Shown here one piece after another: positions 47,412 to 64,000 of a stretch of DNA of 64,000 nucleotides. Source of the DNA: Streptomyces sp. WAC 04229. Lineage in GTDB: Bacteria > Actinomycetota > Actinomycetes > Streptomycetales > Streptomycetaceae. Every line of letters starts with the position of its first letter. The stretch's first letter is position 1. The stretch spans positions 1 to 64,000 of the forward strand of contig NZ_QHJH01000008.1 of NCBI RefSeq assembly GCF_003947455.1, given 5' to 3'. Below the pieces are notes generated by a model that saw only the letters and a list, made by a program, of their open reading frames with translations, was not told the DNA's origin and ran no database searches. A program made the translations under genes and the position numbers.

Positions 47412-47810
47412 ATGAGTGCTGCTCCGCGTTCCGACAAGCCGGTGGGCCGGTTCCGGCGCATGTTCGACCGGCTCTCCTCCTCGCAGGAGGACCTGGAGTC
47501 GGAGGAACTGCGCGAGGACGCCGACACCGCCGGCTGCACCCGCATCGGAGACTGTCAGGACCGGCAGGTCGTGTCGGTTACTGGTACCTTGCGCACGGTC
47601 ACCCTGCGACCGCGCGCGGGCGTTCCGGCCCTTGAGGCCGAGCTGTTCGACGGTTCCGCGGCCCTGGACGTGGTGTGGCTGGGCAGACGCTCCATCGTGG
47701 GCATAGAGCCGGGGCGCAAGCTCATCGCATCGGGCCGGATCTCGATGAGCCGGGGCCGCCGGGTGCTCTTCAACCCGAAATACGAACTGAGACCCCTCGG
47801 ACGGGAGTAG
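47412..47810 (+). CDS. OB-fold nucleic acid-binding protein
   Basis: 132 aa with a compact beta-barrel OB-fold (VSVTGTLRTVTLRP, ELFDGSAALDVVWLGRR, IEPGRKLIASGRI) after a 40-residue helical lead. Conserved in Actinobacteria beside DUF3159 (Rv2694c). ATG 47412 lacks a ribosome site and has TACGCT 6 bases upstream, so leaderless translation is likely. 3-bp gap to the DUF3159 gene. Confidence 0.87.
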   Translation: MSAAPRSDKPVGRFRRMFDRLSSSQEDLESEELREDADTAGCTRIGDCQDRQVVSVTGTLRTVTLRPRAGVPALEAELFDGSAALDVVWLGRRSIVGIEPGRKLIASGRISMSRGRRVLFNPKYELRPLGRE

Positions 47811-47813
47811 CCG

Positions 47814-48608: not shown

Positions 48609-48631
48609 CGGTCCGGCGCCGTCCAACCTGT

Positions 48632-48689
48632 GGCGGTACGACGGTGGGGGCGCCCGGAGATCTCCGGGCGCCCCCACCGTCGTACCGCC
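48632..48689. terminator. 58-bp perfect palindrome (bidirectional terminator)
   Basis: Two 29-bp arms (48632-48660 and 48661-48689) are perfect complements with no loop, centred on AGATCT, between the convergent DUF3159 and trkA genes. It can form a very stable hairpin on both transcripts. Confidence 0.9.
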
Positions 48690-48696
48690 GTACCCG

Positions 48697-49374: not shown

Positions 49375-50045
49375 CAGTGACCGCCCCCTTCTTCGGGCCC
49401 CTTGGCGAACGCCGCCTCGACCTTGTCGACCTCGTCGGTGCGCATCATCACGTGCACCAGGTCACCCTCCTGCAACACGGTCTGCGAGGAGGGCAGGATC
49501 GCCTCCCCGAGCCGGGTGAGGAAGGCCACCCGCACACCCGTCTCCTCCTGGAGCCGACTGATCTTGTGGCCGACCCAGGACGGTGACGTGTGCACCTCGG
49601 CGAGCTGGACCCCGCCGGTGGGGTCGCGCCACAGCGGCTCGGCGCCCGAGGGGAGCAGCCGGCGCAGCATCTGGTCGGCCGTCCAGCGGACCGTGGCCAC
49701 CGTGGGGATGCCCAGGCGCTGGTAGACCTCGGCGCGGCGGGGGTCGTAGATGCGGGCGGCGACGTTCTCCACGCCGAACATCTCGCGCGCCACGCGGGCG
49801 GCGATGATGTTCGAGTTGTCGCCGCTGGAGACGGCCGCGAAGGCGCCCGCGTCCTCGATGCCCGCCTCGCGCAGGGTGTCCTGGTCGAAGCCGATGCCGG
49901 TGACCCGGCGGCCGCCGAACGAGGAACCGAGACGTCGGAAGGCGGTGGGGTCCCGGTCGATCACGGCGACCGTGTGCCCCTGCTGTTCCAGGGCCTGGGC
50001 GAGGGCGGAGCCCACCCGCCCGCAGCCCATGATGACAATGTGCAC
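49374..50045 (-). CDS. trkA: TrkA/RCK potassium uptake regulatory protein (CeoB-like)
   Basis: 223-aa RCK protein with GCGRVGSALA Rossmann motif, SSGDNSNIIAARVAREM and a TrkA-C region (LQEGDLVHVMMRTDEVDKVE). It has the same architecture as its downstream partner but only modest similarity. First gene of this leftward pair; a 210-bp leader before it contains the 37-aa small ORF. No TrkH-type membrane partner is adjacent, but the KimA-like transporter lies divergently upstream. Confidence 0.93.
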   Translation of the reverse strand: MHIVIMGCGRVGSALAQALEQQGHTVAVIDRDPTAFRRLGSSFGGRRVTGIGFDQDTLREAGIEDAGAFAAVSSGDNSNIIAARVAREMFGVENVAARIYDPRRAEVYQRLGIPTVATVRWTADQMLRRLLPSGAEPLWRDPTGGVQLAEVHTSPSWVGHKISRLQEETGVRVAFLTRLGEAILPSSQTVLQEGDLVHVMMRTDEVDKVEAAFAKGPEEGGGH

Positions 50046-50255
50046 GGCTCTACACCACTCTTCTTCCGAGCCCTCTGACGTAGGCGTACGTCCCGCTCAT
50101 TTTCCTCTTTCGGCTCGACGGGCAACACGTGCGGCCCCTGTCCGGGGGCGCCGGCCACCATCATGCCGGTCCGGCGGGTCCGGCCCCCGTCCGGGTGGCC
50201 CCCGACGCCCCGTCGACGGCCGAGCCTACTGACGCGGAGGGCCGGGCGTCCCGCC

Positions 50256-50369
50256 TCAGCTCTCCACCGACGACCCCCGGCGCCCGATGCTGCGGATGCT
50301 GGCAAAAGTGAGGATTCCGAGGCCGGCGAGTGAGAGAAGGCCGCCGATCAGCTCCGCGGACAGGTGCAT
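50256..50369 (-). CDS. Small membrane protein, 37 aa
   Basis: 37-aa reading frame, MHLSAELIGGLLSLAGLGIL at the start, one hydrophobic helix (residues 7-23) then a basic, Ser-rich tail ending VES. GGAGG is 5 bases before ATG 50369, an excellent ribosome site. It lies between the trkA pair and the K+ transporter gene and is divergent from the latter by 192 bp. The size and layout suggest a membrane-associated modulator, but nothing known can be named. Short ORFs of this kind are easily missed. Confidence 0.7.
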   Translation of the reverse strand: MHLSAELIGGLLSLAGLGILTFASIRSIGRRGSSVES

Positions 50370-50547
50370 GAGACCTCCAGGGTGGCAACGGCCGGGCATC
50401 GGGCGGTGTTTGCGCGGTGTTCGTCATATAGGCATGCCAGGCCCCGGACCTGCGGAATCCGCAGCCCGACCACCCGTCGAATTCACCCGTAGAGCAGACG
50501 GCGGGTGGATCGGGGGTGGCGGGTGGGCGCGCGCCCGTTCGAACGCT

Positions 50548-50553
50548 TACGAT
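50548..50553 (+). promoter_or_regulatory. Putative -10 box (TACGAT) of a leaderless KimA-like gene
   Basis: TACGAT ends 8 bases before the GTG at 50562, which has no ribosome site in front. Transcription is likely to start at or next to the start codon. No clear -35 match. Confidence 0.5.
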
Positions 50554-50561
50554 CCTCTGTT

Positions 50562-52625
50562 GTGTCCAAACTGACCGACGTGCCCAAGCGGATCCTGATC
50601 GGGCGCGCACTGCGCAGCGACCGGCTGGGCGAAACGCTCCTGCCGAAGCGGATCGCCCTCCCCGTCTTCGCATCCGACCCGCTCTCCTCGGTGGCGTACG
50701 CGCCCGGCGAGGTGCTGCTCGTGCTGTCCATCGCGGGCGTGTCGGCGTACCACTTCAGCCCCTGGATCGCGGTCGCGGTCGTCGTCCTGATGTTCACGGT
50801 CGTCGCCTCCTACCGGCAGAACGTGCACGCCTACCCCAGCGGCGGCGGCGACTACGAGGTGGCCAACACCAACCTGGGACCCAAGGCGGGCCTGACCGTC
50901 GCCAGCGCCCTGCTGGTCGACTACGTGCTGACCGTCGCCGTCTCGATCTCCTCCGGCATCGAGAACCTCGGCTCCGCGGTCCCCTTCGTGGTCGAGCACA
51001 AGGTCCTCTGCGCGGTCGCCGTGATCCTGCTGCTGACCCTGATGAACCTGCGCGGCGTCAAGGAGTCGGGCAAGCTGTTCGCGATCCCGACGTACGTCTT
51101 CGTCGGCGGTGTCTTCATCATGATCGCGTGGGGCGCGTTCCGGTCCCTGGTGCTCGGCGACACCATGCGCGCGCCGACGGCGGACTACGAGATCAAGCCG
51201 GAACACGGCGGTCTCGCCGGATTCGCCCTGATCTTCCTCCTCCTGCGCGCCTTCTCCTCCGGCTGCGCCGCGCTCACCGGTGTCGAGGCGATCTCCAACG
51301 GCGTCCCGGCCTTCCGCAAGCCCAAGTCGAAGAACGCGGGGAACACCCTCGCGATGATGGGCCTGCTCGCCGTCACCATGTTCTGCGGCATCATCGCGCT
51401 CGCGTCCGCGACGGACGTGCGCATGTCGGAGAACCCGGCCACCGACCTCTTCCACAACGGTGTCGCCGTCGGCGCGGACTACGTCCAGCATCCGGTGATC
51501 TCGCAGGTCGCGGAGGCCGTCTTCGGCGAGGGCAGCTTCCTGTTCATCGTGCTGGCCGCGGCCACCGCGCTGGTCCTCTTCCTCGCCGCGAACACCGCCT
51601 ACAACGGCTTCCCGCTGCTCGGCTCGATCCTCGCCCAGGACCGCTACCTGCCGCGCCAGCTGCACACGCGCGGTGACCGCCTGGCGTTCTCCAACGGCAT
51701 CGTCCTGCTGGCCGGCGCCGCCATACTCCTCGTCTTCATCTACGGCGCCGACTCCACGCGCCTGATCCAGCTCTACATCGTCGGCGTCTTCGTCTCCTTC
51801 ACGCTCAGCCAGATCGGCATGGTCCGGCACTGGAACCGCCACCTGGCCACGGAGAAGGACCAGGCCGCGCGCCGCCGCATGATCCGCTCCCGGGCCATCA
51901 ACGCCTTCGGCGCCTTCTTCACCGGACTCGTCCTGGTCGTCGTACTGGCCACGAAGTTCACCCACGGCGCCTGGGTCGCTCTGCTCGGCATGTGCATCTT
52001 CTTCGCCACGATGACGGCGATCCGCAAGCACTACGACCGGGTCTCCGAGGAGATCGCCGCCCCCGAGGACCCGGAGGAGGCGCAGAGCGACGACATGGTG
52101 CGCCCGTCCCGGGTCCACTCGGTGGTGCTCATCTCCAAGATCCACCGGCCCACCCTGCGCGCGCTCGCCTACGCCAAGCTGATGCGCTCCGACTCCCTGG
52201 AGGCGCTCAGCGTCAACGTCGACCCGGCCGAGACCAAGGCCCTGCGCGACGAGTGGGAGCGGCGCGGCATCGCCGTACCGCTGAAGGTCCTGGACTCGCC
52301 CTACCGCGAGATCACGCGGCCGGTCATCGAGTACGTCAAGAGCCTGCGCAAGGAGTCCCCGCGCGACGCGGTCTCGGTCGTCATCCCCGAGTACGTGGTC
52401 GGCCACTGGTACGAGCACCTGCTGCACAACCAGAGCGCCCTGCGCCTCAAGGGCCGCCTCCTGTTCACGCCCGGCGTCATGGTCACGTCCGTCCCGTACC
52501 AGCTCCAGTCCTCGGAGGCCGCGAAGAAGCGGGCCCGCAAGCGGCAGGACTGGAACGCGCCCGGCGCGGTGCGGCGCGGCCCGCTCCACCACGACCGGGC
52601 GAAGGACTCCTCGCCGTCGAAGTAG
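50562..52625 (+). CDS. APC-superfamily K+ transporter, KimA-like
   Basis: 687 aa. A 12-helix APC transporter domain (about residues 30-470) is followed by a cytoplasmic C-terminal domain of about 200 residues. Blocks such as ASDPLSSVAYAPGE, YPSGGGDYEVA, SSGCAALTGVEAISNGVPAF and a late LLHNQSALRLKGRL match by eye Bacillus subtilis KimA (YdaO), a proton-coupled K+ importer. Its M. tuberculosis counterpart (Rv2690c) also lies beside ceoB. GTG 50562 is leaderless by sequence. The transporter sits between the RCK genes and the RNA methyltransferase gene. Confidence 0.85.
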   Translation: MSKLTDVPKRILIGRALRSDRLGETLLPKRIALPVFASDPLSSVAYAPGEVLLVLSIAGVSAYHFSPWIAVAVVVLMFTVVASYRQNVHAYPSGGGDYEVANTNLGPKAGLTVASALLVDYVLTVAVSISSGIENLGSAVPFVVEHKVLCAVAVILLLTLMNLRGVKESGKLFAIPTYVFVGGVFIMIAWGAFRSLVLGDTMRAPTADYEIKPEHGGLAGFALIFLLLRAFSSGCAALTGVEAISNGVPAFRKPKSKNAGNTLAMMGLLAVTMFCGIIALASATDVRMSENPATDLFHNGVAVGADYVQHPVISQVAEAVFGEGSFLFIVLAAATALVLFLAANTAYNGFPLLGSILAQDRYLPRQLHTRGDRLAFSNGIVLLAGAAILLVFIYGADSTRLIQLYIVGVFVSFTLSQIGMVRHWNRHLATEKDQAARRRMIRSRAINAFGAFFTGLVLVVVLATKFTHGAWVALLGMCIFFATMTAIRKHYDRVSEEIAAPEDPEEAQSDDMVRPSRVHSVVLISKIHRPTLRALAYAKLMRSDSLEALSVNVDPAETKALRDEWERRGIAVPLKVLDSPYREITRPVIEYVKSLRKESPRDAVSVVIPEYVVGHWYEHLLHNQSALRLKGRLLFTPGVMVTSVPYQLQSSEAAKKRARKRQDWNAPGAVRRGPLHHDRAKDSSPSK

Positions 52626-52688
52626 AGTGGACGGCTGCGGTCCCTACCCGCCGTCCCTCACACCCCCGTTCTCTGGAGCCACCCCGCC

Positions 52689-54041
52689 ATGCAGGCAGAA
52701 CCGAAGAAATCGCAGGCGGAGTCCGGAGCGGTCTCGCTCGTCGGCGAGGAGTACGAGGTCGAGATCGGCCCCGTCGCGCACGGCGGCCACTGCATCGCCC
52801 GTACGTCCGAGGGGCAGGTGCTGTTCGTCCGGCACGCGCTGCCCGGCGAGCGCGTCGTGGCCCGGGTGACGGAGGGCGAGGAGGGCGCCCGCTTCCTGCG
52901 CGCCGACGCCGTCGAGATCCTGGACGCCTCCAAGGACCGCGTCGAGGCTCCCTGCCCCTTCGCCGGTCCCGGCCGCTGCGGGGGCTGCGACTGGCAGCAC
53001 GCCAAGCCGGGCGCCCAGCGCCGCCTGAAGGGCGAGGTCGTCGCCGAGCAGCTGAAGCGGCTGGCGGGCCTCACTCCGGAGGAGGCCGGCTGGGACGGCA
53101 CGGTGATGCCCGCCGAGGGCGACAAGCTGCCGGCCGGGCAGGTCCCGTCGTGGCGCACCCGCGTGCAGTACGCGGTGGACACCGAGGGCCGTGCCGGCCT
53201 GCGCAAGCACCGCTCGCACGAGGTCGAGCCGATCGACCACTGCATGATCGCCGCGGAGGGCGTCAGCGAGCTGGGCATCGAGGCCCGGGAGTGGCCCGGC
53301 ATGGCGTCGATCGAGGCGATCGCGGCGACCGGCTCCCAGGACCGCCAGGTCATCCTGACCCCGCGGCCGGGCGCACGGCTCCCCATCGTGGAACTCGACC
53401 GCCCGGTCTCGGTCATGCGGGTCGGCGAGAAGGACGGCGGCGTCCACCGCGTCCACGGCCGCCCCTTCGTCCGCGAACGCGCCGACGGCCGCACGTACCG
53501 GGTCGGCTCCGGCGGCTTCTGGCAGGTCCACCCGAAGGCGGCCGACACCCTGGTGACCGCGGTCATGCAGGGCCTCCTCCCGCGCAAGGGCGACATGGCC
53601 CTCGACCTGTACTGCGGCGTGGGCCTCTTCGCCGGCGCCCTCGCCGACCGGGTCGGCGACCAGGGCGCGGTCCTCGGCATCGAGTCCGGCAAGCGCGCGG
53701 TCGAGGACGCCCGGCACAACCTGGCGGCCTTCGACCGGGTGCGGATCGAGCAGGGCAAGGTCGAGGCGGTCCTGCCCCGGACGGGCATCGACGAGGTCGA
53801 CCTCGTCGTCCTGGACCCGCCGCGCGCGGGGGCGGGCAAGAAGACGGTGCAACACCTCGCGTCACTGGGAGCGAGGAGGATCGCCTACGTGGCGTGCGAT
53901 CCGGCTGCGCTGGCCCGGGATCTGGGGTACTTCCGGGATGGGGGGTATCGGGTGCGGATGTTGCGGGTGTTCGACTTGTTTCCGATGACTGCGCACGTGG
54001 AGTGCGTGGCTATCTTGGAGCCTGCTGCAAAGGGTCTCTGA
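52689..54041 (+). CDS. TRAM-domain 23S rRNA/tRNA (uracil-5-)-methyltransferase
   Basis: 450-aa TrmA/RlmD-like enzyme. An N-terminal TRAM beta-barrel is followed by a [4Fe-4S]-type Cys set at 89, 97 and 100 (CPF...CGGC) plus a later HC, then the SAM domain: DLYCGVGLF, DPPRAGAGKK, catalytic Cys in YVACDPAAL and the Glu in HVECVAIL. It methylates uracil C5 in rRNA or tRNA. A GGAG ribosome site precedes ATG 52689. The M. tuberculosis homologue Rv2689c occupies the same place. The gene marks the right end of the conserved chromosomal block; GC content falls over its last 150 bp. Confidence 0.93.
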   Translation: MQAEPKKSQAESGAVSLVGEEYEVEIGPVAHGGHCIARTSEGQVLFVRHALPGERVVARVTEGEEGARFLRADAVEILDASKDRVEAPCPFAGPGRCGGCDWQHAKPGAQRRLKGEVVAEQLKRLAGLTPEEAGWDGTVMPAEGDKLPAGQVPSWRTRVQYAVDTEGRAGLRKHRSHEVEPIDHCMIAAEGVSELGIEAREWPGMASIEAIAATGSQDRQVILTPRPGARLPIVELDRPVSVMRVGEKDGGVHRVHGRPFVRERADGRTYRVGSGGFWQVHPKAADTLVTAVMQGLLPRKGDMALDLYCGVGLFAGALADRVGDQGAVLGIESGKRAVEDARHNLAAFDRVRIEQGKVEAVLPRTGIDEVDLVVLDPPRAGAGKKTVQHLASLGARRIAYVACDPAALARDLGYFRDGGYRVRMLRVFDLFPMTAHVECVAILEPAAKGL

Positions 54042-54316
54042 CCTGCTGTTTTCCTGGGTTTCTCATACGCGGCTGGACATACTCGACCTGTTTTCCGAAG
54101 CGCAGCGGTTCGAGTGGGCGGATCGATCTCTATAACTCGCTGACCTGCAGATTCGTGAGCGAGGTGCGTTGCACCGGCGACGTCTTTGAGGGGCGTTCGG
54201 AGATTCTTGACGCTCGGATGACGCTCGCAGCAGAAGCCTCTGCTGCCCCTCCTGAGGCGCTGTGCGCCGCCTTGGGCCCTAGGTCTTCGGGGATCGCGAC
54301 TCGACCGAGACAGTCG
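54042..54316. other. Non-coding lower-GC stretch
   Basis: 275 bp before the toxin-antitoxin operator. No supported gene and no tRNA cloverleaf or repeat seen. It marks the border of the accessory region. Confidence 0.4.
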
Positions 54317-54335
54317 TGATACCGGTCAGGTATCA
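54317..54335 (+). promoter_or_regulatory. Palindromic operator of the toxin-antitoxin genes
   Basis: TGATACC (54317-54323) and GGTATCA (54329-54335) form a perfect inverted repeat with a 5-bp centre. It overlaps the TATCAT -10 box (54331-54336); a GAGACA -35 at 54307-54312 has an 18-bp spacer. Antitoxin binding here would block transcription. Confidence 0.65.
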
Positions 54336-54342
54336 TGCATGC

Positions 54343-54537
54343 ATGGCGATGACACTCCGACTGCCTGATGACCTTGACGCGAAGCTGTCCGAGCGGGCTC
54401 GTCGGGAAGGCCGTAGCAAGCAGGAGCTTGCTATCGAGGCCATCCGTGATGCCCAGGACCGGGCCGAGCTGAAGGTCGATGACGTTCTGGCCGAGCTGAT
54501 GGACAGTGATGCGGAGATTCTGGACTACCTGAAGTGA
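54343..54537 (+). CDS. Ribbon-helix-helix antitoxin
   Basis: 64 aa. The N-terminal TLRLPDDLDAKLSERARREG is a ribbon-helix-helix DNA-binding motif (beta strand, helix, GRSKQELAIEAI second helix); the acidic C-terminus (DDVLAELMDSDAEILDYL) probably binds the toxin. ATG 54343 follows the TATCAT -10 box by 6 bases with no ribosome site, so translation is leaderless. It is coupled to the toxin gene by a 4-bp overlap (54534-54537) and should repress its own promoter through the palindrome. Confidence 0.85.
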   Translation: MAMTLRLPDDLDAKLSERARREGRSKQELAIEAIRDAQDRAELKVDDVLAELMDSDAEILDYLK

Positions 54538-54926
54538 CGGACGTGCGCTACCTCCAGATCGACGAGATCCTGGCCATCGCCCGCGCGGTCAACGGTACCG
54601 AGCACAGTGTGCGTGACATGGGGCTTCTGGTCTCGGCGATCGAGAGACCACGCACGAATGTGTTCGGGGCCGAGCTGTATCCCACGCTGCACGAGAAGGC
54701 TGCGGCACTGCTGCACTCCGTAGCCCGTAATCACGCGTTGATCGATGGCAACAAGCGGACCGCCTGGCTCGCCATGCGTGTCTTCCTGCGGTTCAACGGC
54801 GTGAGCGCCGGCACCGTCCCGCCGCCCGTCTCCGTTGCCGGCCCGTTCGTCGAGGACGTCGCGCAGGACAACGTCGATATACCGGTCATTGCAAAGCGCT
54901 TGTCGTCCTGGTTTCCCGTCATTTGA
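54534..54926 (+). CDS. Doc-type (Fic fold) toxin
   Basis: 130-aa death-on-curing protein. The Fic/Doc motif HALIDGNKR is at residues 67-75, followed by TAWLAMRVFLRFNG. Doc toxins phosphorylate elongation factor Tu and stop translation. GTG 54534 overlaps the antitoxin stop. It pairs with a ribbon-helix-helix antitoxin rather than a Phd protein, an uncommon but known pairing. GC content is lower than in the flanking chromosome, consistent with transfer. Confidence 0.88.
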   Translation: MTDVRYLQIDEILAIARAVNGTEHSVRDMGLLVSAIERPRTNVFGAELYPTLHEKAAALLHSVARNHALIDGNKRTAWLAMRVFLRFNGVSAGTVPPPVSVAGPFVEDVAQDNVDIPVIAKRLSSWFPVI

Positions 54927-55487
54927 CGTTCGGCTGACGGTTCGTACGCCTGACTAGGGTGGTCTGCTGGGGCAGTTGCGGGTCCGGGGACGACGAGGGC
55001 GACGATCTCATCGACGACGAGCACCGCGACGTGGCGGTCCTACTGCTCGTCACCTCGTCGACCGCCGCCGAGCCCTCGACGGTGGCAACACACCGGGCTC
55101 GAGCAACTCGGGGCTGAGCAACTTTCGATCCATCAGTTTGGACTGCTGCTCGCCGCACTGCAGACGAACGCGTTTGGGGCGAACAGCCCTGGGGCCCCGC
55201 GGCTATGGGCCGCGGACACTGCACGACGATGAGCAGGGACGGGCCTGGCTCGCTGAGCTTCGGAGGCGTCAGCGCTGTGATGCGCCCGGTGTTGCAGTCT
55301 GGGACTCGGGCACTGGAGGGCAGTGTGCGGAGGTAGAGCGTGGTCGGGCCTCACTTGGGCGGAGGGGCGTGATCACCGATGCGATCGTGCGCCCCAACTT
55401 CGGCGGTCCGGTCGTGGGGTGGGTGGCAGGTCGGACAATCTCAAGAGTTCTTCGTGTGCGCCATGAGGCTGCCGTTACTCTCTTCTG
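54927..55487. other. Gene-poor stretch, possible coding remnants
   Basis: 561 bp with no reliable gene. A rightward frame from about 55100 to 55491 (ending LRVRHEAAVTLFW, overlapping the next start by 4 bp) shows some protein-like composition but no recognisable family or ribosome site, and could be a decayed gene. Confidence 0.35.
55476..55481 (+). promoter_or_regulatory. Putative -10 box (TACTCT) of a leaderless lipoprotein gene
   Basis: TACTCT ends 6 bases before the GTG at 55488, and there is no ribosome site. The pattern matches the other leaderless starts in this window. Confidence 0.45.
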
Positions 55488-56345
55488 GTGACAGAGCGAA
55501 AGTCGGTTCGAATAGCGACTCTTATGGCGTTTGTGGCCCTTGTTGTGAGTGCCTGTGCGGGGCCGGGTGCGGAACAGACTGTTCCGGCCGCGGCCTCGGC
55601 GGCGGCAGCAGTCGCGCCGGAATGCGTCGTACCGGAGGTGATCGGACACCGAGGCACCCCAGAGGACGAGAACACCCTGAAGGGGCTTCGGGACGCAGTG
55701 GGCGCCGGCGCTGGGGGCGTTGAGTTCGACGTGTGGTGGACGAGTGACGGTGTGCCGGTCCTCTCCCACGACGCGACGGTCGACCGCACCACGACGGGGC
55801 ACGGGGCGATCTCCGACATGACTGCCGCGCAAGTCAGGCTGTTGCGCACCAAGAGGGGGCAGCCCGTTCCCACGCTTGAGGAGGCGCTGCGTTACGTGGC
55901 GGAGCAGCGGATGACGGGCATGGTCGAGCTGAAGCCGACGCCGACACCCGCGCAGGTGCAGTCGCTCCTGGCGCTCATCCGGAAGACCGGGACTGCTGAG
56001 TACGTCGTAGTGCACAGCTTCAATCGGGCGGCGGTCGATGCCGTACGCCGAGCGGCACCCGAGCTTCGCACTGCCTTGACGCACGAAAAGACGGCCATCA
56101 GTGGTGCGGAGGCGGCCCGGTACGGCACTTCCTTGAACGTGTCTCGTTTCCTGGCCACTCCGGAAGCTGTCGAAGACTGGCACGCGGCGGGGCTGCGCGT
56201 GTACGTGTGGACAGCGAACTGGGAACCGGCCTGGGAGACGGCGAAATCCGCCGGTGTCGACGTGGTCCTCACTGACCGAGTCGCACCCTACAAGCTCTGG
56301 GCTCGAACGGCGTGCGTGGTCGTTCCGACGAGGAACTCTAGGTAG
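55488..56345 (+). CDS. Glycerophosphodiester phosphodiesterase lipoprotein
   Basis: 285 aa. A lipoprotein signal with lipobox LVVSAC (Cys23) targets it outside the cell. The GDPD barrel carries IGHRGTPEDENT, VEFDVWW, HDATVDRTTTG and ELKPTPTP, matching the catalytic His and metal-binding Glu/Asp sites. It would release glycerol-3-phosphate from phospholipid head groups or teichoic-acid-like polymers. GTG 55488 is leaderless by sequence. GC and codon use are lower than those of the core region, so it is probably acquired. Confidence 0.87.
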   Translation: MTERKSVRIATLMAFVALVVSACAGPGAEQTVPAAASAAAAVAPECVVPEVIGHRGTPEDENTLKGLRDAVGAGAGGVEFDVWWTSDGVPVLSHDATVDRTTTGHGAISDMTAAQVRLLRTKRGQPVPTLEEALRYVAEQRMTGMVELKPTPTPAQVQSLLALIRKTGTAEYVVVHSFNRAAVDAVRRAAPELRTALTHEKTAISGAEAARYGTSLNVSRFLATPEAVEDWHAAGLRVYVWTANWEPAWETAKSAGVDVVLTDRVAPYKLWARTACVVVPTRNSR

Positions 56346-56379
56346 TTCGTTGGTATTGCTTGGCGGACCAGAGGGAGGT

Positions 56380-56863
56380 ACCTCTGTCTGCCGCCACGGC
56401 CGCCCCGACGCAGTCGATGGCCACGCCGGCCGGTCGGAACGGGGGTCACCGCTCGGACATCGCGTTCCCGGTGCCTGGACCAGCCCGGTGACGGGTCACG
56501 CAGGCGGTCCGTGACCTTCATGAGGGCGGTGCGTGGCCGACCTGGCCGGCACTGAGCGCCAACGCGAGTAGTCGGCAGAGGCTGTCGGTCTCAAGCGGAA
56601 CTTCGTGGTCAGTTCGCTGCGGGGCCGACACGACCGATGGCATGGTCGTCTGACACTCCGGCAGGAGCCCCGTCCGAGATTCCCTGCCACGTGCTGGTGA
56701 GCCCACGCGCGATCGTGGAGTCGACGGCCGCGGCCTGGGTGCTGAGCGGCTGGCTGCGACCTTCCGCTCCATGACCGAGACCGTATGTGACAACGCCGAC
56801 ATGGACGCGTCTCTGGACCGGGGGTGGCCGGGACCTTTCAGGGATGCCTCCGCTCCTCGTCAT
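56380..56863 (-). pseudogene. Degraded IS5-family transposase
   Basis: Three out-of-register fragments on the minus strand match, in order, the C-terminal half of Streptomyces IS5-type transposases: VDSTIARGLTSTWQ...DDHAIGRVG (near 56740-56640), then a LALALSAGQVGHAP block, then DRLRDPSPG... and RAVTPVPTGRRGHRLRRG. Frameshifts and at least one deletion separate them. No terminal repeats are recognisable. Confidence 0.65.
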
Positions 56864-57252
56864 AGCGAGGACGTGTTCTCCTGACCGCGCAGGAGGACTA
56901 CGCCGTGTCGGGCCGTGGCGTTGATCATTCCTGCTTTGCCGAGGAGAGCCTGTGGGTTCTCCGCCAGCCAGTCCGAGGGGGCGTCGGCCGGTTCGCGCAC
57001 CGCAATCTGCGTCGATGGCGAGTCGTTCGCTGTCACCTTTATCGGGTTTATCGGGTCATCGGGGCCAATGGTCGCCCAGGCGCTGCGAGGCCCGGTCGGC
57101 TACTCGACGCCAGCCTCAGCCCCAAGCGCGTCAAGGCGGTGCTCCCACTCGTCCAGCTCCCGGCGGAATGCCTGTGGGCCGGCTCCTTCATTGAACAAGT
57201 CTCACGCTTCGGTTAGGGCGACAGTCGCGGCCTGGTGCGGAGCAGCCTTCAT
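56860..57252 (-). pseudogene. Protein gene of unknown family with two in-frame stops
   Basis: One minus-strand frame from ATG 57252 to the stop at 56860 (131 codons) keeps protein-like composition throughout but is interrupted by TGA at codon 17 (57202-57204) and TAG at codon 51 (57100-57102). The segments read MKAAPHQAATVALTEA, then DLFNEGAGPQAFRRELDEWE..., then WATIGPDDPINPIKVTANDS... and ATARHGVVLLRG. Restoring both stops to sense codons would give a continuous small protein. I do not recognise the family. It abuts the transposase relic, which fits gene decay. Confidence 0.5.
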
Positions 57253-57433
57253 GCGACCTACGCCGACGGCGACGCGATCCGAATGCCAACGTCCTGGACC
57301 AGCGCAGACCAAAGGCCGAAAAGTGCCCCTGCTGGCTTGAATCGATCTTGTGTGGCACGTGCATGATCATTACGCTCCGGTCAGTTGTGCCTTATGCACT
57401 CGGTGTGACGAGTGCGAAATTTCTGTGAACTTG

Positions 57434-59020
57434 ATGGACTCGGGGTGGGGTGTGCGCGTTTTCGGCAAGGCGGTTGGCGCCTGTGTTGGGATGGCGGTGA
57501 TCGTGGCCGCCGTGCCTGGTGGTGCACACGCCCAACCGGTGGCCGCACCGGCGGCGGCATGTGCGGGAAGCGGCCAGGACTTCAACGGCGATGGCCTTTT
57601 TGATGTGGTCGTCGCGGACCCGCAGGCGACGGTCGACGGGGTGCCTCAGGCGGGGCTGGTCCGCGTGATCTACGGCGGGGGCAAGGGGACGTCGGAGATC
57701 TCGCAAGCCCTGCCCGAAGACGCTGCCGCACCTGAGCGCGGGGACCAGTTCGGCTTCTCGTGGGCGGTGCGCGATGCCGATGGGGACGCCTGCGCGGACC
57801 TGGTCGTGGGGGTGCCCTACGAGGACGTGGTCGTCGACGGCGCGAACCAGCTCGATGCGGGTGCCGTGTACGTGTACCACGGCTCCGCGACCGGCCTGGG
57901 GACTCCAGGCGCGCGCATCGACAACTGGACACAGCACGTGATCAACGCCGGAGCTCTGACCGAGGCCGGCGACCTGTTCGGCTATTCACTGGCGTCCGGG
58001 ACCGCCGCTTCCGGTCAGCCGTGGCTCGCCATCGGCGTGCCGGGCGAAGACCTGACGTCGGACAATGTCGTGCGGCCCGAGGCCGGGGCGGTCGAATACC
58101 TGCAGGGCTCGACCGTGTGCGGCATCACTCAGGACACCCCCAGTGTGCCCGGTGCTGTCGAGGCTTACGACCGCATGGGCAGCTCGCTGACTGGAACCCA
58201 TCGCTACTTCGCTGTGGGCAGTCCGGGTGAGGCGATCGGGACCCAGGAGTTCGCGGGCATGGCGACCGTGTTCAGTCATACGCTGGAGAACGGCTGTCCC
58301 AAGCCGCTGGTTGGCCTGGACCAGGCCGGGGCGAGCGACGGGATGCCCGGCACCGCGGAGGCAGGCGACCAGTTCGCCACGTCGGTCAGCATGGACAACT
58401 ACCGTCCCGCTGACGAGACCTACAACTCGGACGCGATGCTGGCGATCGGTGTTCCGGGGGAGTCCGTCGGCGAGGTCCCCAGCGCCGGCATGGTGTCCGT
58501 GGTGCGCATCCAGCCGACCGGCGCCGTCAGCACCTTGGCGACCATCGACGCGACGGTGGCGGACGTCGAAGGCGATCCGGCCTCCGGTGACTTCTTCGGC
58601 CAGCGGGTGACACTCGCGAACAGGGACGCCTCCGTGGTCACGGGCCCCGCGACGGCGCGCCTGGCAGTGGCCGTCCCCGGCCGGGATGTCGGAGCCGCCA
58701 AGGACGCCGGGGTCGTTCAGGTCTTCAAACCGCTGGACGCTTCGCTCGGCTCAACGGACAAGATTCTGTCCCGCGCGGCCTCGGGGAGCCTGCTTCCCGG
58801 GGTCGCGACGGCACGGGACTACCTGGGTACCAGCCTGCGCTCCGGGGCGAACATGCTGTACGTGGGCGTGCCCTACAGCAAGGAACCGGCGACCAGCAAG
58901 GGCGCCCTCTACTCCTTGACCTGGGCTGCGGTGGACGCCGACCAAGGCACAGCGACTCTCTACCGGCCGGGCGCGGGCGGCATTCCCGATGCCGGCACGT
59001 CCTTCGGCATAGTCGGGTGA
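57434..59020 (+). CDS. Secreted FG-GAP/VCBS repeat protein
   Basis: 528 aa with a signal peptide (hydrophobic stretch about residues 12-30, cleavage after GGAHA). The rest consists of about six FG-GAP (integrin alpha-like beta-propeller) repeats such as DFNGDGLFDVVVADP, DQFGFSWAVRDADGDACADLVVGVP and GDLFGYSLASG...WLAIGVPGE. Such proteins are surface or adhesion modules. The start is uncertain: ATG 57434 lacks a ribosome site and nearby GTGs are possible. Its stop overlaps the next gene (GTGA at 59017-59020), so these genes form one operon. Confidence 0.82.
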   Translation: MDSGWGVRVFGKAVGACVGMAVIVAAVPGGAHAQPVAAPAAACAGSGQDFNGDGLFDVVVADPQATVDGVPQAGLVRVIYGGGKGTSEISQALPEDAAAPERGDQFGFSWAVRDADGDACADLVVGVPYEDVVVDGANQLDAGAVYVYHGSATGLGTPGARIDNWTQHVINAGALTEAGDLFGYSLASGTAASGQPWLAIGVPGEDLTSDNVVRPEAGAVEYLQGSTVCGITQDTPSVPGAVEAYDRMGSSLTGTHRYFAVGSPGEAIGTQEFAGMATVFSHTLENGCPKPLVGLDQAGASDGMPGTAEAGDQFATSVSMDNYRPADETYNSDAMLAIGVPGESVGEVPSAGMVSVVRIQPTGAVSTLATIDATVADVEGDPASGDFFGQRVTLANRDASVVTGPATARLAVAVPGRDVGAAKDAGVVQVFKPLDASLGSTDKILSRAASGSLLPGVATARDYLGTSLRSGANMLYVGVPYSKEPATSKGALYSLTWAAVDADQGTATLYRPGAGGIPDAGTSFGIVG

Positions 59021-62000
59021 ACACGATCATGAAGTCCATACCAAGACCTGGCAGACGCAAACGCAGCCGCTCCCGCCGAGTCGTGACCGTGACGGCGGTC
59101 TCCGCGGTCCTGGCCACCGGACTCGGTGTGGTGCCGATCGGATCCGCGGAGCCGGCCCCCGCCCAAGCAGCCGATCAGAACGGCCCGGCAGCCGCGCCCG
59201 ACACGCATACGGCCCAGCGCGAAGCCGCGTCCAGCGGCGAGAGCGTAGAAGTGCTGGACCTGCGCTCCGAGCGCAGCACCACGGTGGCCAACCCCGACGG
59301 AACGTTCACCCAGACGGAATCCGTGCAGCCGGTGCGCACCCGCAAGAACGGTGCCTGGCAGGCGATCGACACCACACTGGAACGCAGCTCCGACGGCAGC
59401 TGGGGCCCCAAGGCCGCAGTCAGCACGATGTCCTTTTCCGGAGGCGGCGACAGGACCTTCGCGCGGATCGAGAAGGACGGCCGGGAACTGGCCCTGTCCT
59501 GGCCCCAAGACCTGCCTGAACCGCAGGTCGAGGGATCGACGGCCACCTACGCCGACGTGCTGCCCGGCGTGGACCTGCGCCTGCACGCGGACGCCGAAGG
59601 CTTCTCGCACATCCTGGTCGTCAAGGACGCAAAGGCGGCGACCAACCCCGACCTCACGCGTCTCGAACTCCCCGTGCGCGCCCACAACCTGGATCTGACG
59701 GCGACGCAGACCGGTACGGTCGAAGCACGCGACGCCTCGGGCTCCGGCGTGGTCTTCGAGGCACCGAAGCCCTTGATGTGGGACTCGAGCCACCCCGCGG
59801 AAGACACCGACACCGGGGGCGTGCAGACACAGAGCCTCGCAGCCGACGACTCCTCCGACGCGGGTTCAACCCCGCCCGACGGCGCGCAGGTGGCCGACGT
59901 AGCGGTAGACGTGTCCGACGGCGTGCTGGCCCTGGAGCCGGACACCGATCTGCTCACGAGCAGTGAGACGACGTACCCGGTGTACATCGACCCGGTCGTC
60001 AAGACGGCGAACCGCTCCGCATGGACGATGGTGTCGTCCTACCACTCCTCCGCCGAATTCTGGAAGTTCGGCGACGATGAAGGTGTCGGGCGCTGTCCCT
60101 CCAACGTGTCCTATCGGTGCTCTTCGACCAACGACGTCAAACGGCAGTTCTTCGCGCTGCCCACCGGTGCCTTCGAGGACAAGGACATCATCTCGGCGGA
60201 GTTCGCCGTGACGATGGTGCACACCTACAGCGACAGCGGCCGGTCGGTGCAACTGGGCCGGGTCAACTCCAACGGCGCCAGCGCCATCAACTCCGGCACC
60301 AACTGGGGGAACCAGCCCTCCCTGAAGGAGAACCTCGCCTCGCAGTCACCGACCAACCCGGCCGGTTCCTGCACCAGCACCAACCAGAACGTCCGGTTCA
60401 ACGTCAAAAGCACCCTGCAGAAGGCGTCGACCTACGGCTGGGACACCACGACGTTCCGGCTCGCCGCCGGAAGCGAGAGCGACTACTCGTACTGGAAACG
60501 GTTCTGCGGCAACGCCAACCTTGAGGTGAAGTACAACCGGCCGCCCGCGCAGTCACCCATGAGCGATTTGCGCATGGCACCGGGAGGCAACTGCGAGTAC
60601 GGGCGCGCCACGGACCACTACGTCTCCGCCCCGCCGAAGCTGACCGCTGTCATCCGGGACTACGACCACGGCGACGTGGGAGGGAACTCGGAGCGGCTGC
60701 AGGCTCAGTTCCGGGTCTGGTGGACCGTCGGGGGCACCACGTACAACCACTACGCGACCACTGCGGCCAAGAGCACCGTGGACAGTTCCTGGAGTGACCA
60801 GACAGGAGTGGCGACCTTCACCTACACCGTGGGATCCGACCTGGCCGGGGACGGCCAAGCCGGTTTCACCGTCCCGCAGAACGCGGTGATCGGTTGGACG
60901 GTCCGCGGCCACGACGGCACCTCCTATGGCGCCTGGAGCCTGGACGGTGACGCTACCCGCTGCGAGTTCATCTACGACGCGACCGTCCCCAAGGCCCCGG
61001 TCGTGACGTCCGACCGCTACCCCGATGATGAACAGTGGCACGCAGGCGTCGGCGACTACGGCACCTTCACCTTCGACTCGCCCTCATCGGACGTGGCCGC
61101 CTACCGCTACCGGTTCAAGGGTGAGAGCTGGAAGTACGTGAACGCCGCCAGCCTCGGCGGCCCGGCGAAGACCACCTGGATGCCACCGGACGAGGGACCG
61201 ATGTTCGTCGACGTCCTCGCAGTGGACGACGCCGGCAACGCGCAGAAGACGCCGACCACGCACTCGTTCAACGTCGGCGACGGACGCGCTCCTACGGCCG
61301 GATGGAGCCTGGGCGATGCCGCCGGTTCCACGCAGGCGGTCGGCATCGGTGCCTCTCCGGCTGCGGCCGCCGGAAACGGCGTGACCTTCGGACGGACAGG
61401 CCCCCTGGGCGGCGCGGACACCGCTGTGGCCCTTGACGGCTCGGCCGGCGGCTACCTCGATGCCGGAGCCTCGGCCGTGGACACCGGATCGACGTTCTCG
61501 GTGAGTGCCTGGGTCCAACTGGCCGAGCGACCCGACGGCGACGTCACGGTCGTCAGCCAGGACGGTGTCGCCCAGCCGGGCTTCGACCTGGGCTACGACG
61601 CGGACACGCAGTCCTGGACCTTCTCCATCCCCGTCTCCGACATGCAGACCATGGGCAGCTGGACGGTGTCCGGCGCAAAGGCGGTACCCGGAACCTGGAC
61701 CCACCTCATCGGCAGCTACGACGACGTCACAGGCAACATGAGCCTGTTCGTCAACGGCGACCTGATCGAGAAGGCCGTGAAGGCCCGACACACCGTCTGG
61801 AGCGCGGACGGCGCCCTTCAGATCGGACGGAAGATCGCCCTGGACGGCTACACCAACCACCTCAAGGGCGGCGTCGCGGACGTCAAGCTGTACGACCGGG
61901 TGATCACCTTGGCGGAAGGGCTCAGCCTCGGCGGAGTCCCCGTCCGCCAGCTGGCCTACTGGCAGGTTGACAGCGCCGCAGCCGGCGTCTCCCCGGACGC

Positions 62001-62685
62001 ACACGGCGGCCCCGGCCTGACGCTGGGCGGACAGGCCGCGATCTATCTGCCCGACGACTCCTGTGATCCAGCGCTCGACCCCGAGTGCACCCTCCCGGCC
62101 GAACCGCTGTGGGGCGACGGACACCTCCAACTCGACGGCACAACCGGCTATGCAGCGCGCGACGCCGGCTTGCTGGCTGAGCAGGACGGGTTCACGCTCA
62201 CAGGCAGGGCACGGCTCGCCGCCGCCCTGCCCACCCGGGACCAGACGGTTGTCTCCCTTGCCGGTACGGGCAACAGCGCCGTGACCGTCAAGTACCTGGC
62301 CTCGGCCCAACGCTGGGCCATGGTCACCACGGAAGGGACCGGAGCCACCGCCAAGTCCACGACGACCCTGGCGACCGGCACCCTGCCCAGCAGCGAAGGC
62401 AAGGGTGATCACCTGGCCCTGGTCTACTCGGCGGTCTTCGGAGACGTGCGGCTCTACGTCAACGGCACCCTGGCCGCCACGACGGCCTGGGACAACACCT
62501 GGGACTTCACCACCACGTCCCTGCAGGTCGGACGATCCCTCGACGGGACAGTGGCAGGCGGATACTTCGCCGGTGCTCTCGACGAGCTCCGCGTCTTCGC
62601 CGGCGACCTGGACACCAGCGTCGTCGCACAGGTGAGCCGCCTGCCCGCCGGCTCGAGTATCGGGGAGCCGGACGTGGCGACCTGA
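59017..62685 (+). CDS. Large secreted protein with DNRLRE-like and two LamG domains
   Basis: 1222 aa, exported by a basic N-terminus plus hydrophobic segment (about residues 24-48). A region about 50-330 has DNRLRE/wall-associated style blocks (TYADVLPGVDLRLHADAEGFSHILVV; PVYIDPVV), then an Ig-like/beta segment and two LamG/concanavalin-like domains (about 765-970 and 1015-1215, each with WTHLIGSYDD- or DHLALVYSA-like and LFVNG or LYVNGTL motifs). It is typical of the adhesive partners of polymorphic toxins. GTG 59017 overlaps the preceding stop; ATG 59029 is the alternative start. Confidence 0.82.
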   Translation: MNTIMKSIPRPGRRKRSRSRRVVTVTAVSAVLATGLGVVPIGSAEPAPAQAADQNGPAAAPDTHTAQREAASSGESVEVLDLRSERSTTVANPDGTFTQTESVQPVRTRKNGAWQAIDTTLERSSDGSWGPKAAVSTMSFSGGGDRTFARIEKDGRELALSWPQDLPEPQVEGSTATYADVLPGVDLRLHADAEGFSHILVVKDAKAATNPDLTRLELPVRAHNLDLTATQTGTVEARDASGSGVVFEAPKPLMWDSSHPAEDTDTGGVQTQSLAADDSSDAGSTPPDGAQVADVAVDVSDGVLALEPDTDLLTSSETTYPVYIDPVVKTANRSAWTMVSSYHSSAEFWKFGDDEGVGRCPSNVSYRCSSTNDVKRQFFALPTGAFEDKDIISAEFAVTMVHTYSDSGRSVQLGRVNSNGASAINSGTNWGNQPSLKENLASQSPTNPAGSCTSTNQNVRFNVKSTLQKASTYGWDTTTFRLAAGSESDYSYWKRFCGNANLEVKYNRPPAQSPMSDLRMAPGGNCEYGRATDHYVSAPPKLTAVIRDYDHGDVGGNSERLQAQFRVWWTVGGTTYNHYATTAAKSTVDSSWSDQTGVATFTYTVGSDLAGDGQAGFTVPQNAVIGWTVRGHDGTSYGAWSLDGDATRCEFIYDATVPKAPVVTSDRYPDDEQWHAGVGDYGTFTFDSPSSDVAAYRYRFKGESWKYVNAASLGGPAKTTWMPPDEGPMFVDVLAVDDAGNAQKTPTTHSFNVGDGRAPTAGWSLGDAAGSTQAVGIGASPAAAAGNGVTFGRTGPLGGADTAVALDGSAGGYLDAGASAVDTGSTFSVSAWVQLAERPDGDVTVVSQDGVAQPGFDLGYDADTQSWTFSIPVSDMQTMGSWTVSGAKAVPGTWTHLIGSYDDVTGNMSLFVNGDLIEKAVKARHTVWSADGALQIGRKIALDGYTNHLKGGVADVKLYDRVITLAEGLSLGGVPVRQLAYWQVDSAAAGVSPDAHGGPGLTLGGQAAIYLPDDSCDPALDPECTLPAEPLWGDGHLQLDGTTGYAARDAGLLAEQDGFTLTGRARLAAALPTRDQTVVSLAGTGNSAVTVKYLASAQRWAMVTTEGTGATAKSTTTLATGTLPSSEGKGDHLALVYSAVFGDVRLYVNGTLAATTAWDNTWDFTTTSLQVGRSLDGTVAGGYFAGALDELRVFAGDLDTSVVAQVSRLPAGSSIGEPDVAT

Positions 62686-62783
62686 TCGCCCCGGAGCGGG
62701 TGCCCGGCCACGGCCGGGCGCCCCTCTTCGCCGGCCCCCTGACGTCCGCGGCGTGCCCGCGCCCCTGCTCACCTGGAGCTGTC

Positions 62784-64000
62784 ATGCGCTCAACCTCCTG
62801 GAGACTCAGCGCCGCCAGACGCGTCGCCGCCACCCTGGGCCTGGCCCTCGCTGTGTCCCTGCTGCCACAGATCAGCCCTCTGCCCGCCGACGCGCAGGCC
62901 GCAGGGCTGGACCGGCTGCCCACACAGACGGACCTTGACCACCCCGTGGACGGGAAGAACCTCAAGCCCGAGAGGTACAAGAAGCCGGACCCGGCACGCA
63001 AGGCCGCCGTTACGGAGGCGGACAAGCACGCGTGGCCGATTGCGGGCCGAGCCAAGGTCGAGGTGGGCGCCAAGGCCCAACGGGCAGGGAAACTGCCGAT
63101 ACGGATCGCGAAGACAGGCGCTGCGAGCCCCACGGCGGTCGAAGTGGCCGTTGCGGACCACGGCACGGCGGAACGAGCCGGCATCGACGGAACCCTGATG
63201 ACCGTGGCCCGCGCTGACGGCCAGCACAAACCGGGCACGGTGAAGCTGTCCGTGGACTACGCACCGTTCGCTGCAGCCTACGGCGGGGACTACTCCTCCC
63301 GCCTCCGCCTGGTGCAATACCCGGCATGCGTTCTGACCAGCCCGGAAAAGACCGCCTGCACCAAGCCGGTCCCGCTGGAATCGGACAACGACACCAGGAC
63401 TCGCACCCTCACCGCCACCACCCGGGTGACGGCCGGGGCAGCCGGCGCCGGTACCAGCGCGGCGCCCACCGTCCTGGCGGCCACCGCCGGTGACTCCGGC
63501 GCGCAGGGCAGCTACACGGCGACCTCCCTGGCCCCGTCCTCGAAGTGGAGCGTGTCCAACTCGTCGGGTGCCTTCACCTGGTCCTACCCGATCACCACGC
63601 CGCCCGTGCCGGGGGGCCTCGCCCCCGAGGTGGGGCTGAGCTACAACTCCCAGTCGATCGACGGCCAGACGTCTGCCACGAACAACCAGGGTTCCTGGAT
63701 CGGCCAGGGCTTCTCCTACGAGCCGGGCTACATCGAGCGCCGCTACAAGGCGTGCGCCGACGACGGCCACGACGACACCAACGGCGACCAGTGCTGGGGC
63801 ACCGACAACGCCACCATCTCGATCGCCGGGGGCGCCTCCGGAGAGCTGATCAAGGACGACAAGACCGGCGAGTGGCGTATCAGCTCCGACGACTTCTCGA
63901 AGATCGAGAAGCTGACCGGTGCGAGCAACGGTGACGCCGACGGAGAGTACTGGAAGGTCACCGACACCGACGGTACGCAGTTCTTCTTCGGGCTCAACCA
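62784..64000 (+). CDS. RHS-repeat/polymorphic toxin-type secreted protein (3' end cut by window)
   Basis: Open from ATG 62784 to the window edge, 405 codons seen. A GGAG ribosome site lies about 6 bases upstream. The N-terminus is a secretion signal (RRVAATLGLALAVSLLPQ). It then reads like the N-terminal part of Streptomyces RHS-associated proteins: TWSYPITTPPVPGG, LAPEVGLSYNSQSIDGQTSATNNQGSWIGQGF and CADDGHDDTNGDQCWGTDNAT, the entry to the sugar-barrel/RHS shell. The RHS core and the C-terminal toxin domain, with any immunity gene, lie beyond the window. 98 bp after the LamG gene, same strand. Confidence 0.85.
   Translation, partial: MRSTSWRLSAARRVAATLGLALAVSLLPQISPLPADAQAAGLDRLPTQTDLDHPVDGKNLKPERYKKPDPARKAAVTEADKHAWPIAGRAKVEVGAKAQRAGKLPIRIAKTGAASPTAVEVAVADHGTAERAGIDGTLMTVARADGQHKPGTVKLSVDYAPFAAAYGGDYSSRLRLVQYPACVLTSPEKTACTKPVPLESDNDTRTRTLTATTRVTAGAAGAGTSAAPTVLAATAGDSGAQGSYTATSLAPSSKWSVSNSSGAFTWSYPITTPPVPGGLAPEVGLSYNSQSIDGQTSATNNQGSWIGQGFSYEPGYIERRYKACADDGHDDTNGDQCWGTDNATISIAGGASGELIKDDKTGEWRISSDDFSKIEKLTGASNGDADGEYWKVTDTDGTQFFFGLN

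What the first reader, a model, noticed from the sequence alone, without database searches (positions are those of the whole stretch)
57434..64000. Operon of large secreted adhesin/toxin-type proteins
FG-GAP propeller, LamG/DNRLRE protein and an RHS-type protein are on one strand, the first two overlapping by 4 bp. The third should end in a variable toxin domain outside the window. Inference: the first two proteins form a surface scaffold for display or delivery of the RHS toxin in contact-dependent competition.
Basis: partly seen in the sequence, partly recalled or inferred. Interest (0 to 1): 0.6.

Follow-up and report, generated by a model that had tools for sequence, protein, structure and literature searches.

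The report
Three-gene secreted RHS toxin operon
This soil bacterium carries a conserved set of probably secreted genes, a propeller protein, a lectin-like protein and a giant cage protein ending in a swappable, probably RNA-cutting toxin with its own antidote gene, which it may use to poison competing bacteria.

Summary
Gene 1 (57434-59020) is an integrin-like FG-GAP propeller protein. Gene 2 (59017-62685) has two LamG stretches and a DNRLRE-type region. Gene 3 runs from 62784 (or 62700) to contig position 69617: SpvB-like region, YD repeats, Rhs core, PT-HINT and a 109-residue tip. A 137-aa putative immunity gene overlaps its stop by 4 bp. Among listed RHS relatives in 295 congeneric genomes, 38 of 41 at 60% identity or more have the FG-GAP gene upstream; at 49-57%, 0 of 98. 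Across 21 operons scaffold and HINT align in 210 of 210 pairs, tips in 7 of 210. The same tip with its immunity gene also sits on distant RHS scaffolds. The tip matches no Pfam or NCBIfam family; profile and predicted fold point to a CdiA toxin (8EY4) and, weakly, colicin D, hence probably a tRNase. 'Contact-dependent surface scaffold' is not shown: genes 1 and 2 have no convincing anchor. I favour a secreted multi-protein toxin whose propeller and lectin-like parts choose targets, by analogy with Streptomyces umbrella toxins. Association, secretion and toxicity are untested.

The parts
57434..59020 (+). Gene 1: integrin-like FG-GAP beta-propeller protein, 528 aa from ATG 57434 (GTG 57350 is the longest frame); N-terminal hydrophobic signal-type segment, residues 6-32
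   Evidence: (weak integrin alpha matches, best E 2.3e-4)
59017..62685 (+). Gene 2: DNRLRE-type / two-LamG protein, 1222 aa; starts inside the stop of gene 1 (4-bp overlap); hydrophobic segment, residues 21-43
   Evidence: PF13385, 2 stretches; DNRLRE in an orthologue
62784..64000 (+). Gene 3, part inside the window: N-terminal and SpvB-like region of the RHS protein (GTG 62700 is the longest frame). It continues on the same contig to 69617 (YD repeats, Rhs core, PT-HINT, 109-aa tip) and is followed by a 137-aa putative immunity gene at 69614-70027, both outside the window
   Evidence: identity of the fetched stretches with the window checked

Best explanation
The locus is a polymorphic-toxin operon of Streptomyces made of four genes. 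Genes 1-3 are exported, probably by Sec. Gene 3 folds as an RHS shell that encloses its C-terminal tip; the PT-HINT domain cuts the tip free. The tip is a nuclease related to a CdiA toxin, most likely a tRNase. Gene 4 is the cognate immunity protein of the producer. Gene 1 (propeller) and gene 2 (LamG/DNRLRE) are dedicated partners of this RHS clade that bind the RHS protein and/or carbohydrates or proteins of the target wall, so that they set target range. Shown here: gene content, order, domain types, co-occurrence and parallel divergence of the three scaffold genes, exchange of tip plus immunity gene, relationship of the tip to 8EY4. Inferred: secretion, complex formation, receptor binding, HINT cleavage, tRNA cleavage, immunity.
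For: Order and strand of the three genes in 20 of 20 fetched relatives. Reverse test: FG-GAP gene upstream of 38 of 41 listed RHS relatives at 60% identity or more, 2 of 11 at 57-60% and 0 of 98 at 49-57% (on the listed rows). Pairwise identities of genes 1, 2 and 3 rise and fall together (r 0.92-0.94, 0 of 2000 permutations). Scaffold and HINT align in 210 of 210 pairs, tips in 7 of 210; L018 and L019 share a 94.9% identical RHS core with tips that show no similarity. Of 19 other tips in this operon type 4 match a Pfam family above cut-off (Pput2613-type deaminase, Tox-ART-HYD1, HNH, DUF7587). Tip plus immunity gene with the same 4-bp overlap in 7 of 8 GTDB loci; on L065-L068 the RHS scaffolds are 39-61% like ours while the tip is 67% like ours. 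Tip profile to 8EY4 E 1.6e-7; predicted fold to 8EY4 Z 9.0.
Against: No experiment. No evidence that genes 1 and 2 touch gene 3; parallel divergence is also expected from plain vertical inheritance. FG-GAP and LamG folds do not prove sugar binding. The N-terminus of gene 3 did not reach the hydropathy threshold, and its only segment over it is internal (residues 1949-1969 of the 2277-aa form). The tip model is one good model of five (pLDDT 78.4 against 43.5-57.1); Foldseek alone gives 8EY4 E 1.1e-3; colicin D lies at Z 5.0-5.5, a level the tool calls common. No relative of this immunity protein was found beside the tip in 2 of 8 genus relatives (L040, L041) and 1 of 8 GTDB loci (L072). 3 of 41 close RHS relatives lack a listed FG-GAP gene nearby, and in one locus (second RHS of G129) the FG-GAP gene is only 1.0 kb upstream of the matched RHS region, with no gene 2 match between them.
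Confidence: 0.63

Rival explanations
1. One reading: genes 1 and 2 form a surface-fixed scaffold that displays the RHS toxin for killing on contact, as proposed for WapA of Bacillus and Streptococcus suis.
For: DNRLRE domain in gene 2 orthologues; DNRLRE lies in the N-terminal wall-binding part of S. suis WapA, and a fragment with LysM and DNRLRE domains bound SrtB1 (PMC12704120, passages).
Against: Gene 1 has no sortase-like motif; gene 2's only match, LAGTG at residue 1081, has no hydrophobic tail behind it; no second hydrophobic segment in genes 1 or 2; no wall-binding Pfam hit at E<=0.1.
Confidence: 0.2
2. Split Tc-like device: the FG-GAP propeller is the counterpart, in trans, of the propeller that forms part of TcB chains, and gates or docks the RHS shell.
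For: Gene 3 has an SpvB-like region (PF03534, 25.4 bits against 22) but no FG-GAP match, while the propeller is a neighbouring gene. Zhang et al. list SpvB plus integrin-like propeller as the TcdB/TcaC leader (PMC3482391, passages).
Against: The link between gene 1 and TcdB_toxin_midN is negligible (E 0.088 over 22 residues). No TcA-type gene was sought.
Confidence: 0.1
3. Gene 1 and gene 2 are adhesins or matrix proteins that only share an operon with the toxin and act apart from it.
Against: The association changes sharply with RHS sequence (38 of 41 to 0 of 98), and the three genes diverge together.
Confidence: 0.14

Closest known systems
RHS/YD polymorphic toxins with PT-HINT (Zhang et al. 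2012, PMC3482391, passages; WapA of Gram-positives, PMC12704120, passages)
   Same: RHS protein with Rhs core, HINT, exchangeable tip, adjacent immunity gene; DNRLRE domain in the system as in WapA of S. suis
   Different: The DNRLRE/LamG part and the FG-GAP propeller are separate neighbouring genes, not domains found in the RHS chain
Streptomyces umbrella toxins (UmbA/UmbB/UmbC; PMC11062931, PMC13274773, passages)
   Same: Same genus, multi-gene antibacterial toxin; UmbA C-terminal domains include beta-propeller and laminin_G_3 families; the HINT region of gene 3 matches PDB chain 8w20 (E 1.7e-24), which I recall as UmbC1
   Different: RHS shell instead of ALF repeats; no trypsin-like domain in genes 1 or 2 and no ALF repeat in gene 3 among the Pfam hits; the word 'rhs' does not occur in the main text of either paper
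Tc toxin BC module (TcdB/TcaC)
   Same: SpvB-like N-terminal region and RHS repeats; a propeller is present in the system
   Different: Propeller on its own polypeptide; TcA not sought
CdiA toxin of E. coli O32:H37 (8EY4); more distantly colicin D
   Same: Sequence profile and predicted fold of the tip
   Different: Carried by RHS-HINT, not CdiA; the immunity profile finds no PDB relative (best E 0.28)

Membership tests
RHS polymorphic toxin | YD repeats and Rhs-associated core | tested here: met
   TIGR01643 E 3.6e-23, TIGR03696 E 1.8e-16, PF05593 E 3.4e-19
RHS polymorphic toxin | Variable C-terminal tip on a conserved scaffold | tested here: met
   Tips similar in 7 of 210 pairs, scaffold parts in 210 of 210
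RHS polymorphic toxin | Immunity gene downstream, travelling with the tip | tested here: met
   137-aa gene overlapping the stop by 4 bp; same pair in 7 of 8 GTDB tip loci and, at 25-72% identity, in 6 of 8 genus tip loci
RHS polymorphic toxin | The tip is toxic and gene 4 protects | not testable with these tools
   needs an assay
RHS polymorphic toxin | Export signal on the RHS protein | tested here: inconclusive
   signal-like by eye after ATG 62784, below the hydropathy threshold
PT-HINT pretoxin | HINT domain directly before the tip | tested here: met
   PF07591 E 1.2e-18, residues 2057-2195 of the 2305-aa frame
Relatives of CdiA toxin 8EY4 | Sequence and fold similarity over the whole domain | tested here: met
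   profile E 1.6e-7; Z 9.0, 2.4 A over 82 residues of an 88-residue chain; model of a relative 62-67% identical to our tip, one good model of five
Colicin D-type BECR tRNase | Fold | tested here: inconclusive
   5znm Z 5.5 and 1v74 Z 5.0 (colicin D), 1tfo Z 5.2 and 1tfk Z 4.7 (titled ribonuclease from E. coli), all under the tool's caution limit of 8
Colicin D-type BECR tRNase | tRNA cleavage | not testable with these tools
   needs an assay
Umbrella toxin (Umb) | ALF repeats in the large subunit | tested here: not met
   no ALF family among the Pfam hits of gene 3 at E<=0.1
Umbrella toxin (Umb) | Trypsin-like domain fused to the lectin part (UmbA) | tested here: not met
   Pfam at E<=0.1 finds FG-GAP families and a negligible TcdB_toxin_midN match in gene 1 and only LamG in gene 2
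Tc toxin BC module | Propeller in the same chain as SpvB and RHS | tested here: not met
   FG-GAP families only in gene 1; SpvB only in gene 3
Tc toxin BC module | TcA pore-forming partner | not tested
   genome not searched for it
WapA | DNRLRE/wall-binding part in the same chain as RHS | tested here: inconclusive
   NCBIfam finds none in gene 3, but the same scan also missed it in the window's gene 2, whose orthologues have it

The most novel reading that the evidence does not exclude
A second kind of lectin-guided antibacterial particle in Streptomyces, built on an RHS shell: an integrin-like propeller and a DNRLRE/LamG protein, each its own gene, dock onto a secreted RHS-HINT toxin and give it target specificity, while tip and immunity gene are exchanged as a cassette. 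It would be the RHS counterpart of umbrella toxins.
Probability: 0.4. Interest if true: 0.78.

Novelty: new variant of a known kind. Interest (0 to 1): 0.55.

Why it matters
How RHS toxins of Gram-positive bacteria reach and enter a target is not settled. A clade of RHS toxins in which a propeller gene and a lectin-like gene are nearly constant neighbours gives two concrete candidates for that step, in a genus in which lectin-guided protein toxins were described only in 2024. The tip and immunity pair also adds a family absent from the Pfam and NCBIfam copies searched, with a likely RNase fold.

Tried and rejected
Gene 2 structure: the AlphaFold model (5 sequences) is poor (mean pLDDT 51.4), so no fold search was run with it. 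Immunity protein: only sub-cut-off Pfam and NCBIfam hits (best E 0.044 and 0.049) and no PDB relative below E 0.28; its fold stays unknown. Pfam for 8 tip relatives: only one chance-level hit (E 0.056, one member). In one search the rows after 8EY4 and four entries (5znm, 1tfo, 1v74, 1tfk) are at Z 4.0 or less; this is not evidence against other families. Rfam on 53000-57500: one sub-threshold hit, ignored.

A first co-occurrence count used incomplete typed lists and was replaced with all rows listed (119 FG-GAP and 150 RHS places). Limits: the RHS table said that more matches were not listed, and the FG-GAP search scored only 5 candidates per genome, so absences can be misses; G220 has its FG-GAP match on another contig.

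Literature: and 96 of the held PMC library listed no paper that I recognised as about an FG-GAP + LamG + RHS operon. Only part was listed (20 of 195; 15 of 84; 15 of 30), and subscription papers and preprints are not held, so absence from print is not shown. Seen as passages: PMC3482391, PMC12704120, PMC11062931, PMC13274773, PMC12700104, PMC9086364, PMC6117699, PMC9990079; all others as listings only. One search, for 8EY4, listed one unrelated paper, on CdiA tRNases, listed 15 of 54, none with the words O32 H37.

Full report
Observation. The window is positions 1-64000 of a 106,219-bp contig of an 8.17-Mb genome. The genus is taken as Streptomyces: the same-genus genome G256 has a contig of the same length (59,306 bp) with the same tip as the named record L065, S. 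zinciresistens K42. Three + strand genes are present as described. Gene 1 (ATG 57434-59020) carries FG-GAP repeats (PF01839 E 5e-8); by eye there are seven blade-like repeats, four of which a simple pattern finds. Its PDB sequence matches are integrin alpha chains (best E 2.3e-4). Gene 2 (59017-62685) has two LamG stretches; its DNRLRE region is recognised by NCBIfam only in relatives, such as L065. Gene 3 is cut by the window end.

The rest of gene 3. The contig shows a 2305-aa frame (62700-69617; ATG 62784 is my preferred start) with an SpvB-like region (PF03534), YD repeats, the Rhs core (TIGR03696), a PT-HINT domain (PF07591) ending in VLVHN-C, and a 109-residue tip. A 137-aa gene begins at 69614 and overlaps the stop of gene 3 by 4 bp (69614-69617).

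Co-occurrence. In 295 genomes of the genus the FG-GAP protein has 119 listed places at E<=1e-30 in 85 genomes. I fetched the neighbourhoods of the 20 best-ranked genomes other than the own; all 20 hold FG-GAP, LamG and RHS-HINT genes in the same order and strand, with similar frame lengths (gene 1 516-588 aa, gene 2 1203-1331, gene 3 2276-2464). From the RHS side (150 listed places), an FG-GAP gene lies upstream on the same strand within 8 kb in 17 of 17 places at 70% identity or more, 21 of 24 at 60-70%, 2 of 11 at 57-60% and 0 of 98 at 49-57%. So the propeller gene marks a clade of RHS toxins: 40 of 150 listed places, in 38 of 295 genomes by my count. Against a strict three-gene rule, 3 of 41 close relatives lack a listed FG-GAP gene, and the second RHS locus of G129 has the FG-GAP gene close upstream with no gene 2 match between (L034). 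A relative of gene 2 is more widespread: it is adjacent in 8 of 8 loci chosen by their tip that hold an RHS gene of another scaffold type (L037, L038, L040, L041, L066, L067, L068, L072), divergently oriented in three of them (L037, L038, L068). Tip loci without a full RHS gene (L035, L036, L039, L069, L070, L071) were not part of this count. Pairwise identities of genes 1, 2 and 3 correlate at r 0.92-0.94, which shared descent alone could also give.

Polymorphic tip. Among 21 operons all 210 pairs align (blastp E<=1e-3) for gene 1, gene 2, the RHS core and HINT, but only 7 of 210 for the tip. L018 and L019 share a 94.9% identical core with tips that show no similarity. Of the 19 tips other than ours and that of L023, 4 match Pfam above cut-off (Pput2613-type deaminase, Tox-ART-HYD1, HNH, DUF7587), 2 only below cut-off (one of them YwqJ-type deaminase), 13 not at all. 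Conversely, the tip family of this genome occurs in 8 GTDB loci. Five of them hold an RHS gene: L065, of the same operon type (58-61% identical to ours), L066, L067 and L068 (39-44%) and L072 (48-49%); the tips of L066 and L067 are 97% and 96% identical to that of L065. L070 and L071 carry the tip on a protein without RHS; in L069 the contig begins inside the gene. 7 of 8 have the immunity gene with the same 4-bp overlap; L072 has no relative of it. In the genus the tip is found in 9 of 295 genomes including the own; 6 of the other 8 have a relative of the immunity gene next to it, one of them with an internal stop (L036).

What the tip is. It has no Pfam or NCBIfam match (in one search one chance-level hit among 8 relatives). 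A profile of 8 relatives matches 8EY4 (E 1.6e-7), the CDI toxin of E. coli O32:H37 (title). The AlphaFold model of the L065 tip (62-67% identical to ours; pLDDT 78.4, the other four models 43.5-57.1) aligns to 8EY4 at Z 9.0 (82 residues, 2.4 A), then to colicin D at Z 5.0-5.5 and two E. coli ribonuclease entries at 4.7-5.2, values that the tool warns can be common; Foldseek alone ranks 8EY4 first at E 1.1e-3. Invariant positions in the 8-sequence alignment include a histidine in a KH-like motif and the RP of the last strand. A 2022 review says that all characterised BECR-type CdiA tips but one are tRNases (PMC9086364, passages). That 8EY4 itself has the BECR fold, and what it cuts, I did not establish. 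tRNA cleavage is the most likely activity; the substrate is unknown.

How it probably works. Genes 1 and 2 begin with a hydrophobic signal-type segment; gene 3 has a signal-like start by eye that stays below the threshold, and one internal hydrophobic segment (1949-1969 of the 2277-aa form) between core and HINT. Genes 1 and 2 show no convincing anchor. I infer Sec export of all three, an RHS shell holding the tip, HINT cleavage, and target choice by the propeller and LamG/DNRLRE proteins. The nearest functional parallel is the umbrella toxin, whose lectins underlie species-specific binding and whose UmbA C-terminal families include propellers and laminin_G_3 (PMC13274773 and PMC11062931, passages). 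It is not an umbrella toxin: ALF repeats and a trypsin-like domain were looked for by Pfam and not found. It is not a canonical Tc BC module, since the propeller is on a separate chain. Gene 3's best PDB sequence match is the HINT region to chain 8w20 (E 1.7e-24), which I recall as UmbC1.

Genomic setting. The 80 bp at 53973-54052, spanning the end of a predicted RNA methyltransferase gene (52689-54041; name recalled, not scanned), recur at 70599 (90%) and 89034 (79%); at 70599 they are part of a 950-bp direct repeat that flanks the operon (93.8%). The same-species genome G277 is 98% identical from 44310 to 54052 and then has no match in the next 30 kb fetched. Differences are absent from 53962 to 53989, dense to 54052 (14 in 63 bp), then homology ends, as expected if an island entered at the 3' end of this gene and replaced it. 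G277 has no RHS match at E<=1e-60 and only a 41% FG-GAP match. In G092, the closest operon relative, the operon lies about 240 kb from this gene, so the operon is not tied to this site.

Verdict. I rate the locus as a new variant of a known kind.

Noticed in passing
53973-54052 and 53973-54919 (repeated at contig 70599-71548): The 3' end of a predicted RNA methyltransferase gene looks like an integration site: it recurs in a direct repeat flanking the RHS operon, and comparison with the same-species genome G277 suggests a crossover near 53962-53989 followed by an exchanged gene end. None of the 9 proteins scanned is an integrase; the stretch was not searched for one otherwise.
   Followed up: partly
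54316-54926 and contig 70945-71555: The 950-bp repeat carries a ribbon-helix-helix plus Fic/Doc-type gene pair (Pfam on the second copy only), so two similar toxin-antitoxin pairs bracket the RHS operon.
   Followed up: partly
L070:8666-10300, L071:8123-10300, L070:11944-13959: Pretoxin and HINT modules, in two cases with the same tip and immunity gene, are carried by short proteins without RHS whose N-terminal part contains a pilin-like segment (GQGAIEYLGLVLVVVAIVGAL in L070). By eye this resembles a Flp/Tad pilin leader, which would be an unusual toxin carrier.
   Followed up: no
L040 and L041, end of the RHS gene: Two distant relatives of the tip are followed not by the immunity protein found here but by a 140-aa protein with a CPCCGH motif, so one toxin family may have two unrelated immunity types.
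   Followed up: no
55488-56345: A GDPD phosphodiesterase with a lipoprotein-like start by eye lies 1 kb upstream of the operon; no relative was seen in the fetched relative loci, which reach only a few kb upstream of gene 1.
   Followed up: partly
contig 72114-106191, outside the window: Downstream of the second repeat lies a plant-polymer-degrading gene set (GH2, two GH5, GH10 with ricin lectin, GH62 by Pfam; a sugar ABC transporter by eye) on the part that does not match the fetched G277 sequence.
   Followed up: no
contig 68628-68690 approx. (gene 3, residues 1949-1969 of the 2277-aa form): The RHS protein has one internal hydrophobic segment between the Rhs core and HINT, which could serve tip entry into the target cell.
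   Followed up: no
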